DNA from: Deltaproteobacteria bacterium GWA2_45_12
GTDB lineage: Bacteria; UBA10199
Direction: 5' to 3'
DNA: 33,514 bases
NCBI GenBank assembly: GCA_001797365.1
Contig: MGPH01000013.1
Location: forward strand, 30,887-64,400
Part shown: piece after piece, positions 19,458 through 21,663 of the stretch
Layout of the letters: each line of letters begins with the position of its first letter
How positions within the stretch are numbered: the stretch's first letter is position 1
The notes under the pieces: model-generated
The model's input: only the letters and a program-made list of their open reading frames with translations
Database searches by the model: none
Told to the model about the DNA's origin: nothing
Made by a program: the position numbers and the translations under genes

Positions 19458-20594
19458 TTATGCTCCTCCTACAACTTCCATCGCTCGGGCCACACCTTTA
19501 CCCAGTTCAAACTTGTAACCCATTTTAGCCATCGCCATTTCAATGGCCGACCAAACGGTGATCATATCCATGGCATCGTAATAACCCAAATGACCGATAC
19601 GGAAAATCTTCCCCTTGGCGGCATCTTGCCCGCCGGCAATGGTCATATTGAATTGATTGCGCAAAATTTTCACAATATCCCCGGAATTCATTCCTTCAGG
19701 GCCATAAATAGCGGTGATTGAATCAGCCGGTGATTCGGGCGCAAACAGTTTCAAGCCCACAGCCTTGGCCGCCTCACGTACGCTACTAGCCATGATACGA
19801 TGACGCTTGAAAATATTTTCCAAACCTTCTTTTTGCATGTTTTGAAGAACCACACGCAACCCCTGAATAAGGCTTACAGCGGGTGTCCAGGCGGTGGTAT
19901 TTTCCAGGATATTTTTCTTTTCGGTTTTAAAATTGAAATAAAATTTTGGCAGATCGCTCTTTTCAATGAAACCCCAGGCTTTCTGGCTTACGGCTGCAAA
20001 GGAAAGCCCCGGAGGTAATTGAAGCGCTTTTTGGGAACCCGAAACCAAAACATCAATACCCCACTGGTCCATGGGAAGGGGGAACACACCCACACCGGTA
20101 ATGCCATCAACGACTAAGGCTGTTTGATCAAATTTTTTGACAATGGCGGCAATCTCTTGGATGGGGTGAGCCACACCAGTAGAAGTTTCGGAGGCCTGCA
20201 CAAAGACTGCACGATAGTCTTTTTCCTTGAGTTTTGCTTCAATCTCACTGGCTTTGACTGCCTGACCCCACTGGACCTTGATAACATCATGTTCCAAACC
20301 ATACGCCTTGCAAATTTTCCACCAACGCTCACCAAACTTGCCTCCATCCACAACCAGGGCACGATCTCCCTTGGACATTAAATTGACAATGGAGCCTTCC
20401 ATGGCCCCGGTACCGCTGGCAGCAAAAATAAGAACTTCTTCCTTGGTTTGAAACAACCACTTTAAGCCGGCTCTTACTTCTTCAATTACTTTTTCAAAGG
20501 CGGGAGTGCGGTGGTGCCAAATGGGTTTGGCCATCTCGGTTAAAACATCTTCGGGAACAGGGGTGGGACCGGGAGCATAAAGGCGGTATTTCAT
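19458..20594 (-). CDS. Class V PLP aminotransferase (AGXT/PucG type), probable serine-pathway enzyme (378 aa)
   Basis: PLP-dependent fold type I enzyme. It begins MKYRLYAPGPTPVPEDVL, the usual alanine-glyoxylate/serine-pyruvate aminotransferase start. PLP phosphate-binding region: FAASGTGAMEGSI. The Asp contacting the PLP ring is in VVDGITGVGV, and the Schiff-base Lys is in VSGSQKALQLPPG (about K189). Because it is tightly coupled to serA, the most likely role is converting phosphohydroxypyruvate to phosphoserine (replacing classical SerC), as class V members do in several lineages. Serine-glyoxylate exchange is the alternative. The ATG has no Shine-Dalgarno site; instead a four-copy heptamer repeat lies just before it. 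Confidence 0.9.
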   Translation of the reverse strand: MKYRLYAPGPTPVPEDVLTEMAKPIWHHRTPAFEKVIEEVRAGLKWLFQTKEEVLIFAASGTGAMEGSIVNLMSKGDRALVVDGGKFGERWWKICKAYGLEHDVIKVQWGQAVKASEIEAKLKEKDYRAVFVQASETSTGVAHPIQEIAAIVKKFDQTALVVDGITGVGVFPLPMDQWGIDVLVSGSQKALQLPPGLSFAAVSQKAWGFIEKSDLPKFYFNFKTEKKNILENTTAWTPAVSLIQGLRVVLQNMQKEGLENIFKRHRIMASSVREAAKAVGLKLFAPESPADSITAIYGPEGMNSGDIVKILRNQFNMTIAGGQDAAKGKIFRIGHLGYYDAMDMITVWSAIEMAMAKMGYKFELGKGVARAMEVVGGA

Positions 20595-20600
20595 GGAAAG

Positions 20601-20628
20601 TTATGAGTTATGAGTTATGAGTTATGAG
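20601..20628. repeat. Tandem TTATGAG heptamer, four copies
   Basis: Four exact copies of TTATGAG occupy 20601-20628, 6 bp before the start codon of the aminotransferase gene on the other strand. About 30 bp further, TCATAACTCA (near 20663-20672) is complementary to a repeat unit, so the mRNA leader could fold into several alternative hairpins around an AAGGAGAA sequence. Confidence 0.85.
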
Positions 20629-20700
20629 ATTTAAAAAAATTCTCCTTCTCATAAATCACTTGTCATAACTCAGCTTATAAAATTGTAATGAAACCTTCCA

Positions 20701-20775: not shown

Positions 20776-20824
20776 TAAAAAATGTTGCGGGGCTTGGATT
20801 TGAACCAAGGACCTTCGGGTTATG

Positions 20825-21484
20825 CTTACCACGACAACTTTCGTTGCTCCTTAAAATTTAAGAATTCGTGGCCTGGACTTTACCTTCACCATACCATCTC
20901 ATAGAGATGTTTTAGGTGCCTGCCATCAAGTCTCTACACCTTCTCAACCAATTTTAACATTGGCTGAGCTTGGCTCGGGATTACCCTGCTAACGGCTTCC
21001 CCGAGTTTGACAGGTTTTCGTACAAAAGTTTCCTTCTGTACAGCCCACTGCGAAATTAATTTCCAAGCGTCACGATAGCTTGCAGAAGCTGGCTTCCTTT
21101 GGCGCTTGGAGGCTTCGACTAAGTGAATTTCACTGCCGTAGCCAATAAATACCTTACTAGGGAAAACATAGAAGAGATCTAATTCCTCTATGTAAACAAG
21201 AGCAAAGTCAAAATCACTGGAAAGATAATTTTTACGAACCATCTTTCGCCGATTTGTTTTGGTTCGACGATTATCGACAACATAATTGCCTTTAATACGG
21301 TCAAACCAAGCTGACTTCACCTGGACCTTGGAAAGCACACCATTAATATCGAAAACCAGGTCATAGCTTAACCTGTCTCCGATGGGCTTGAGTACCCCCC
21401 AACCCCGCTTCAATGAATGAAGCACGGTGGCCTGTTCAGCCAGATCACCCTTTAGCTTGGTATCCATGTCAATTTCGCGGATCG
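20825..21484 (-). ncRNA. Group I intron (IC3-like) in tRNA-fMet, 660 nt
   Basis: The 5' exon ends in U and the intron ends in G, as group I introns require. Helices I can pair: P1, exon GGCU (21488-21485) with guide GGCU (21045-21042); P1 extension GCGAAATT (21478-21471) with AATTTCGC (21057-21050); P2 with GAAA tetraloop (21041-21020); P3 CCTGTC (21014-21009) with GGCAGG (20924-20919); P4 CTCGGG (21005-21000) with CCCGAG (20979-20974); P6 CTCAGCCAAT with ATTGGTTGAG; P7 GACTT (20932-20928) with AAGTC (20880-20876); P8 CACC...GGTG with CATCTC/GAGATG; P9 CCACGA (20871-20866) with TCGTGG (20834-20829), including a CAAC GAAA GTTG hairpin. The core words AATCCCGAGCCAAGC and GAAGGTGTAGAGACT closely resemble the Anabaena tRNA-Leu and Azoarcus tRNA-Ile introns (from memory). 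It is probably self-splicing. Confidence 0.95.
20934..21467 (-). CDS. Intron-encoded PD-(D/E)XK homing endonuclease (177 aa)
   Basis: The ORF starts 17 nt after the 5' splice site, in the loop of P1. It begins MDTKLKGDLAEQATVLHSL. The restriction-fold motif is visible: Glu11 in the first helix, Asp36 in SYDLVFD, and Gln49-x-Lys51 in KVQVKSAW. This is the E...D...QxK arrangement of the I-Ssp6803I type, the endonuclease of the Synechocystis tRNA-fMet intron. The expected role is to cut intronless tRNA-fMet genes at the anticodon region so that repair copies the intron. The C-terminal ~42 residues (from ISQWAVQKE to the end) are encoded by the ribozyme's P1-guide, P2, P3, P4, P5 and P6 sequences, and the TAG stop lies just before P7. 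No Shine-Dalgarno site is seen. The alternative, an unrelated passenger nuclease, is unlikely given the location. Confidence 0.88.
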   Translation of the reverse strand: MDTKLKGDLAEQATVLHSLKRGWGVLKPIGDRLSYDLVFDINGVLSKVQVKSAWFDRIKGNYVVDNRRTKTNRRKMVRKNYLSSDFDFALVYIEELDLFYVFPSKVFIGYGSEIHLVEASKRQRKPASASYRDAWKLISQWAVQKETFVRKPVKLGEAVSRVIPSQAQPMLKLVEKV

Positions 21485-21532
21485 AGCCCGACGAGCTACC
21501 GGACTGCTCTACCCCGCGGTAAATAGGGGTTG

Positions 21533-21562
21533 CTTATATTGTTTTAAGGCAAGGGGTGTCAA
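21533..21562 (-). promoter_or_regulatory. Promoter of the tRNA-fMet gene
   Basis: Minus-strand TTGACA (21562-21557) and TATAAG (21538-21533), 18 bp apart, with the -10 box ending 14 nt before the mature tRNA 5' end. A C-rich stretch (CAACCCC) follows the -10 box. Confidence 0.7.
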
Positions 21563-21663
21563 CGTTATTGTTTGGGATGTTTTAAAAAAAGTTTTTCGGG
21601 AAATTATTCCGGACAAAATTTTATCTCTTGCCCCTGGCAAAACAGTCATGTTACCAAAGTAAA

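What the first reader, a model, noticed from the sequence alone, without database searches (positions are those of the whole stretch)
20934..21060. Homing-endonuclease C-terminus and ribozyme core share the same nucleotides
The last ~42 codons of the endonuclease run through the P1 guide strand, P2 (with its GAAA loop), P3, P4, P5 and P6, and stop at TAG just before P7. This stretch must satisfy RNA folding and protein coding at once. Ribosomes translating the ORF would unfold the ribozyme, so translation and splicing should compete, possibly as a built-in switch. The C-terminal extension may also have been gained by readthrough into the core.
Basis: partly seen in the sequence, partly recalled or inferred. 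Interest (0 to 1): 0.85.

Follow-up and report, generated by a model that had tools for sequence, protein, structure and literature searches.

The report
Endonuclease gene creeping into its ribozyme
A DNA-cutting "homing" gene sits inside a self-splicing intron of a bacterial start-tRNA gene and its last 42 codons are also the catalytic RNA; relatives show that one base pair usually decides whether the protein runs on into the ribozyme, and that some relatives later left the intron still carrying a translated piece of that ribozyme.

Summary
On the minus strand a 660-nt group I intron splits an initiator tRNA-Met gene between U33 and C34. Its 177-aa ORF is a PD-(D/E)XK homing endonuclease homologous to I-Ssp6803I. 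Codons 137-177 cover the P1 guide strand, P2, the 5' strand of P3, P4, P5 and P6, and end at a TAG inside a stretch invariant in the aligned cores, just before P7.

The phenomenon is published as "core creep" (Edgell, Chalamcharla and Belfort 2011), whose Table 1 lists the Synechocystis relative with a 61-nt P1/P2 overlap. New here, from about 80 relatives:
(1) Ending before P3 or running through P3-P6 usually turns on codon 150, whose first base closes P2: TGA is G·U in 14 of 14 cases, CGA is G-C in all 12 extended cases.
(2) The frame through P3-P4' is almost always stop-free even in untranslated cores, so the tail comes free with the RNA. No protein-level selection was detected in the overlap; residues 151-177 are predicted disordered.
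(3) The P1 extension pairs the start-codon region with codons 137-140, so folding and initiation should exclude each other (inferred).
(4) In cyanobacteria, free-standing relatives beside ORF-less introns still carry, in register, a translated relic of the ribozyme core.

The parts
21485..21518 (-). 5' exon of initiator tRNA-Met(CAT), ends at U33
   Evidence: ARAGORN finds tRNA-Met(cat), 75 nt, on the joined exons
20784..20824 (-). 3' exon of tRNA-Met, begins at C34
20825..21484 (-). Group I intron, 660 nt
   Evidence: Rfam RF00028 57.8 bits; boundaries from tRNA joining and U·G at the 5' splice site
20934..21467 (-). PD-(D/E)XK homing endonuclease ORF, 177 aa, in the P1 loop and running into the core
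   Evidence: PF11645 1.6e-49; I-Ssp6803I 2OST E 6e-65 by sequence, Foldseek TM 0.91 on the target
21469..21478 (-). P1 extension, 5' strand; ends 1 nt before the start codon
   Evidence: own-partner helix score 19.5 vs 13.3 when partners are swapped between introns (max 14.9); pairing probability 0.99
21050..21059 (-). P1 extension, 3' strand, inside codons 137-140
21043..21047 (-). P1 guide strand UGGGC, inside codons 141-142 (Trp-Ala)
   Evidence: complementary to exon GCU and intron CG; GGGC invariant in alignment A2
21020..21041 (-). P2 hairpin with GAAA loop, codons 143-150
   Evidence: 9 of 10 pairs show change on both sides
21018..21020 (-). Codon 150 (CGA here): the gate. Its first base is the 3' partner of the P2 closing pair; TGA (G·U) ends the ORF, CGA (G-C) lets it run through P3-P6
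   Evidence: TGA 14/14 G·U in short ORFs; CGA 12/12 G-C in extended ORFs
20974..21014 (-). P3 5' strand, J3/4, P4, P5, J5/4, P4' (codons 152-167, PVKLGEAVSRVIPSQA)
   Evidence: frame stop-free in 47 of 48 ORF-less introns too
20939..20973 (-). P6 and P6a, variable part of the tail
20934..20939 (-). GUGUAG of J6/7, the stop codon of this ORF
   Evidence: GUAG invariant in 48 cores; used as stop by 10 of 40 embedded ORFs
20825..20932 (-). P7, P3 3' strand, P8, P7', P9: untranslated part of the core

Best explanation
This is a mobile group I intron of the I-Ssp6803I family in which the endonuclease gene, lodged in the P1 loop, has crept into the ribozyme. Shown by comparison: the P1'/P2 overlap (to codon 149) is old and shared; beyond it the RNA itself supplies an open frame through P3-P4', so loss of the stop at codon 150, which costs the RNA only a G·U to G-C change at the base of P2, adds a tail that runs to the next stop, here an invariant TAG before P7. 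The tail looks passive: predicted disordered, variable and not measurably selected as protein. Shown in cyanobacteria: such an ORF left the intron, leaving an ORF-less intron and a free-standing gene downstream whose 3' end keeps an in-register relic of the ribozyme. Inferred: while the P1 extension is open (before the end of the ORF is transcribed) ribosomes can start; once it closes, the start region is buried and the intron splices; relocation ends that conflict.
For: I-Ssp6803I homology by sequence, profile and fold. Covarying core. Stops at different places in 40 embedded relatives: 17 between P2 and P3, 5 in P6/P6a, 10 at the invariant TAG, 6 in P7/P3', 2 before P2. Codon 150 gate. Short and extended ORFs interleave on the tree, 11 changes, at least 5 forced by well-supported branches. 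Frame stop-free without translation: one of 48 ORF-less introns and none of 19 short ones has a stop in the 12 codons tested. No coding footprint. Helix 136-149 at pLDDT 79-95, residues 151-177 at about 51 or less. P1 extension. Relic: type-A core HMM hits the 3' ends of free-standing ORFs in register, best E 0.003; L039 own ribozyme vs ORF 3' end scores 60 vs shuffle maximum 34; 18 loci at exactly the type-A register and 6 more off it by one base or by codon-sized indels; L086 tail peptide 12 of 25 identical to the translated core, 0 of 200,000 shuffles. Literature: core creep, PMC3073962.
Against: No experiment; splicing, translation and cleavage are inferred. The coding-footprint test has little power in the nearly invariant P3-P5. 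In free-standing relatives the tail shows dN/dS of about 0.47, against 0.08 for the domain and below 1, so some protein constraint there is possible. Extended introns are more GC-rich (0.49 vs 0.43, p 0.0009), as core creep predicts, but too few independent pairs exist to separate this from ancestry.
Confidence: 0.85

Rival explanations
1. The overlap is a built-in regulatory switch: translation through the core blocks splicing and folding of P1 blocks translation, and this has been selected.
For: The start region lies directly after the P1 extension 5' strand, which pairs with codons 137-140 with covariation and probability 0.99 in the full transcript, while positions -8 to -1 are open when only the 5' part is present. 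A precedent exists for I-TevI/td (cited in PMC3073962).
Against: P1 extensions also exist in ORF-less introns (seen in L021), so burial of the start may be a by-product. Nothing shows that reading on into P3-P6 rather than stopping before P3 is selected; the gate flips often and follows G·U or G-C at one pair.
Confidence: 0.35
2. The C-terminal tail is a functional protein segment under dual RNA and protein constraint.
For: dN/dS about 0.47 for residues 151-160 in free-standing cyanobacterial relatives; in L086, 7 of the 12 residues shared with the translated core use different codons.
Against: I-Ssp6803I itself and 17 embedded relatives lack it; frame varies after L5 (VIPSQA versus GNPEPS); predicted disordered; shortened or lost in several free-standing relatives.
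Confidence: 0.12
3. The likeness between free-standing tails and the ribozyme is reversed: the peptide was ancestral and the ribozyme came to match it.
For: None found.
Against: The same core sequence and frame (LKFRET, LKLRET) occur in other group I introns of the same cyanobacterial genomes, and viral-contig free-standing relatives lack the tail.
Confidence: 0.02
4. Free-standing genes and ORF-less introns are the ancestral state and embedding came later (collaborative homing pathway).
For: Known pathway in phages (PMC3984707); for the Bacteroidetes free-standing group no relic was found, so polarity there is open.
Against: For the cyanobacterial clade the relic shows that the gene was in the core before it was outside, and the clade groups mostly with extended embedded ORFs (support 88/88).
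Confidence: 0.1

Closest known systems
I-Ssp6803I, tRNA-fMet group I intron of Synechocystis PCC 6803 (Bonocora and Shub 2001; structure 2OST)
   Same: Same host gene, same endonuclease family and fold, ORF in the P1 loop, overlap of P1'/P2, intron 655 vs 660 nt. L106, with a 655-nt intron and a 150-aa ORF, matches its published dimensions.
   Different: In L106 the ORF stops at TGA just before P3; here codon 150 is CGA and the ORF runs on 28 codons through P3-P6.
Core creep (Edgell, Chalamcharla and Belfort 2011, PMC3073962)
   Same: Extension of an intron ORF into the ribozyme by loss of a stop codon; predictions of variable length, GC dependence and dispensable tail are met or consistent here.
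   Different: Here the single gating base pair, the invariant RNA-supplied end stop, and the relic in genes that later left are added.
I-TevI / T4 td intron
   Same: ORF end overlaps P6a-P7; sequestration of the initiation region; translation can harm splicing.
   Different: Other endonuclease family; ORF in P6, 20-nt overlap; RBS hairpin rather than the P1 extension.
Synechococcus L1917 LSU introns (PMC1995217)
   Same: ORF runs from a loop through P7, P3 and P8.
   Different: LAGLIDADG family, P6 insertion, rRNA host.

Membership tests
Group I intron | P3-P8 core with P7 and covarying helices | tested here: met
   Rfam 57.8 bits over gathering 50; 96.4% paired, 25 pairs covary
Group I intron | U·G pair at 5' splice site, omega-G at 3' end, exons rejoin to a gene | tested here: met
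   exon GCU pairs with GGGC; intron ends in G; joined exons give tRNA-Met(CAT)
Group I intron | Self-splicing activity | not testable with these tools
   needs RNA assay
I-Ssp6803I-type PD-(D/E)XK homing endonuclease | PDDEXK_5 domain and fold | tested here: met
   Foldseek 2OST TM 0.91, 66% identity
I-Ssp6803I-type PD-(D/E)XK homing endonuclease | Encoded in a group I intron of tRNA-fMet | tested here: met
I-Ssp6803I-type PD-(D/E)XK homing endonuclease | Cleaves the intronless tRNA-fMet anticodon region | not testable with these tools
   needs cleavage assay
Core creep | Extension length varies between lineages | tested here: met
   five classes of stop position
Core creep | GC content influences the stop position | tested here: inconclusive
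   GC 0.493 vs 0.430, p 0.0009, but only 4 independent pairs on well-supported branches
Core creep | Extension not needed for endonuclease function | tested here: inconclusive
   absent from I-Ssp6803I, predicted disordered; no assay

The most novel reading that the evidence does not exclude
Catalytic RNA has become protein: ribozyme-core sequence translated by core creep was carried out of the intron by escaping endonuclease genes of cyanobacteria and, in lineages such as L086, kept as a functional C-terminal peptide under protein selection.
Probability: 0.25. Interest if true: 0.85.

Novelty: new variant of a known kind. Interest (0 to 1): 0.6.

Why it matters
Core creep was proposed in 2011 from a few examples. 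This family offers dozens of members at one intron site, with ORF-less introns as a built-in control, so its predictions can be tested: the extension mostly opens at one wobble pair, the RNA decides where it ends, and the tail seems passive. The relic in free-standing genes gives a direction (intron to outside) for a step that is usually discussed the other way round, and it is a clear case of protein sequence derived from a ribozyme.

Tried and rejected
Coding footprint in the overlap by codon position: none. Phylogenetic test of the GC effect: too few pairs, though nearly all go the same way. One origin of all free-standing genes: not rejected (AU p 0.071), although 7 changes are needed on the best tree, 2 of them forced. 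Relic in Bacteroidetes free-standing genes: not found; offsets are random. DNA relic in L086 over a longer stretch: score 35, reached by 1 of 1000 shuffles, so only its peptide likeness is strong. Conserved P2 length as evidence of coding: rejected, since the ORF-less introns aligned have the same length. Viral contigs: only two distant free-standing relatives. ARAGORN on the intact window found no tRNA, as expected for a split gene. Literature: no paper found in the held library on a ribozyme relic in free-standing endonucleases; Bonocora and Shub 2001 itself was not read here.

Full report
OBSERVATION. The window holds, on the minus strand, a group I intron (Rfam RF00028, 57.8 bits, 21067-20852). 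Removing 21484-20825 joins two exons into tRNA-Met(CAT); the intron lies between U33 and C34 of an initiator tRNA, and P1 puts a U·G pair at the 5' splice site. The ORF 21467-20934 (177 aa) matches PF11645 (1.6e-49) and I-Ssp6803I (2OST, E 6e-65, residues 2-147); the AlphaFold model matches 2OST with TM 0.91 on the target at 66% identity. A structure written from the window sequence and counted on 48 related cores gives 96.4% standard pairs and change on both sides in 25 of 43 pairs, far above shuffled and slid controls.

RELATIVES. One scan of species genomes, one of viral contigs and several searches of whole genomes gave about 100 distinct ORFs, 89 of them complete enough for a tree. Two layouts occur in tRNA-fMet genes. 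Type A (about 40) has the ORF in the P1 loop of an intron of about 620-740 nt. Type B (48 with a core, some with broken ORFs) has an ORF-less intron of about 240-340 nt and a free-standing ORF downstream of the tRNA, most often 90-150 bp away. L106 (655-nt intron, 150 aa, TGA before P3) has the published dimensions of the I-Ssp6803I intron (PMC1995217).

WHERE THE ORF ENDS. Of 40 embedded ORFs, 17 stop between P2 and P3, 5 in P6/P6a, 10 at the TAG of GUGUAG before P7, 6 in P7/P3', and 2 earlier (a few are broken genes). Nearly all therefore overlap P1' and P2, and what varies is P3 onward. The common short form ends with TGA at codon 150, where the window has CGA. The first base of that codon is the 3' partner of the P2 closing pair. 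TGA in short ORFs is G·U in 14 of 14; CGA in extended ORFs is G-C in 12 of 12. The other extended ORFs have AGA, GGA or other sense codons there. ORF-less introns carry both pairs freely. On a protein tree made without the tail, short and extended forms need 11 changes, at least 5 forced by well-supported branches. Most type A introns have exactly 455 nt from the start codon to the P3-P4 motif.

THE TAIL COMES FREE WITH THE RNA. In the frame of the ORF, P3 to P4' is stop-free in 47 of 48 ORF-less introns and in all 19 short type A introns. The window's end stop lies in GUAGAGACU, invariant in all 48 aligned cores. L5 and P6a change length out of frame, so downstream of P5 the same RNA reads VIPSQA in some lineages and GNPEPS in others. 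Codon-position variation does not differ between translated and untranslated introns (P2 p about 0.72; P3-P5 p about 0.13). AlphaFold gives a helix over 136-149 and pLDDT of about 51 or less from 151 on. So the P1'/P2 part is probably real protein structure, and the P3-P6 part a passive extension. Extended introns are richer in GC (0.493 against 0.430, p 0.0009), as the core creep paper predicts, but independent pairs are too few to exclude ancestry.

TRANSLATION AGAINST FOLDING. In type A introns the first 10-20 nt of the intron pair with the stretch just 5' of the guide strand, which is ORF codons 137-140. The pairing is specific to each intron (mean helix score 19.5; with partners swapped 13.3, maximum 14.9 in 300 trials). 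The 5' strand mostly ends 0-7 nt before the start codon. In the window it forms with probability 0.99 in the whole transcript, while positions -8 to -1 are open when only the 5' part exists. I infer a timing rule: initiation is possible until the RNA polymerase has copied the end of the ORF, after which P1 closes over the start. This is anatomy and folding, not an assay.

ESCAPE WITH A RELIC. Free-standing ORFs of Nostocales and allies end in peptides such as KENCVRSPVQFQEAGF (L021) and KETEEQQPLKFEEFLGDIIPIQAQ (L086), in the same register as the window's KETFVRKPVKLGEAVSRVIPSQAQ, which is the translation of P2-P6. An HMM of type A cores finds these 3' ends as second hits (best E 0.003). Aligning each locus's own ribozyme to the end of its own free-standing ORF puts 18 loci at exactly the type A register and 6 more off by one base or by codon-sized indels; 14 of 48 beat all 300 shuffles; the Bacteroidetes loci fall at random offsets. 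L039 scores 60 against a shuffle maximum of 34. L086 matches the translated core at 12 of 25 residues and L021 at 9 of 15, neither reached in 200,000 shuffles. The same frame of other group I introns in these genomes reads LKFRET or LKLRET, so the peptide derives from the RNA. In L099 the relic lies beyond a new early stop, and several relatives have lost the tail. dN/dS in the cyanobacterial set is 0.08 for the domain, 0.77 for 139-150 and 0.47 for 151-160: mostly relaxed, perhaps weakly kept.

KNOWN AND NEW. ORFs that run into group I cores are known (PMC1995217, PMC3073962, PMC3984707), and the Synechocystis relative is in the 2011 table. The window is a longer example. The gate at one wobble pair, the stop supplied by the RNA, the ORF-less controls and the relic in escaped genes were not found in the held literature, which lacks many subscription papers.

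LIMITS. Many sequences are from metagenome assemblies. The tree rests on 137 columns. Polarity is shown only for the cyanobacterial clade; one origin of all free-standing genes is not rejected (AU p 0.071).

Noticed in passing
L001 1501-2150 (G000 contig C7, 42135-42784): The same genome has a second group I intron (59.6 bits), apparently in a 23S rRNA gene, with a 170-aa LAGLIDADG ORF (PF00961, 3e-25).
   Followed up: partly
L009 1495-1902 and L010: PDDEXK_5 ORFs in group I introns of a different tRNA gene in the same class; in L009 the ORF again stops at a TAG directly before the P7 motif AGACTA.
   Followed up: partly
L091, L092 (viral contigs): Distant free-standing relatives of the endonuclease lie next to tRNA genes, without the ribozyme-derived tail.
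   Followed up: no
L055, L057, L061, L099, L100: Cyanobacterial free-standing relatives that end at 139-147 aa; in L099 the in-register DNA relic of the ribozyme continues past the new stop.
   Followed up: partly
L086 own intron versus ORF tail: The P3 variant that reads PLKF is shared by this intron and by the relic tail of its neighbour ORF, while most others in the clade read PV; a recent escape or conversion is possible.
   Followed up: no
window 21518-21570 (-): TTGACA and TATAAG, spaced like a sigma-70 promoter, lie upstream of the tRNA 5' exon and may be its promoter.
   Followed up: no
window 20594-20650: Short tandem repeat of GAGTTAT units between the aminotransferase gene and the tRNA.
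   Followed up: no
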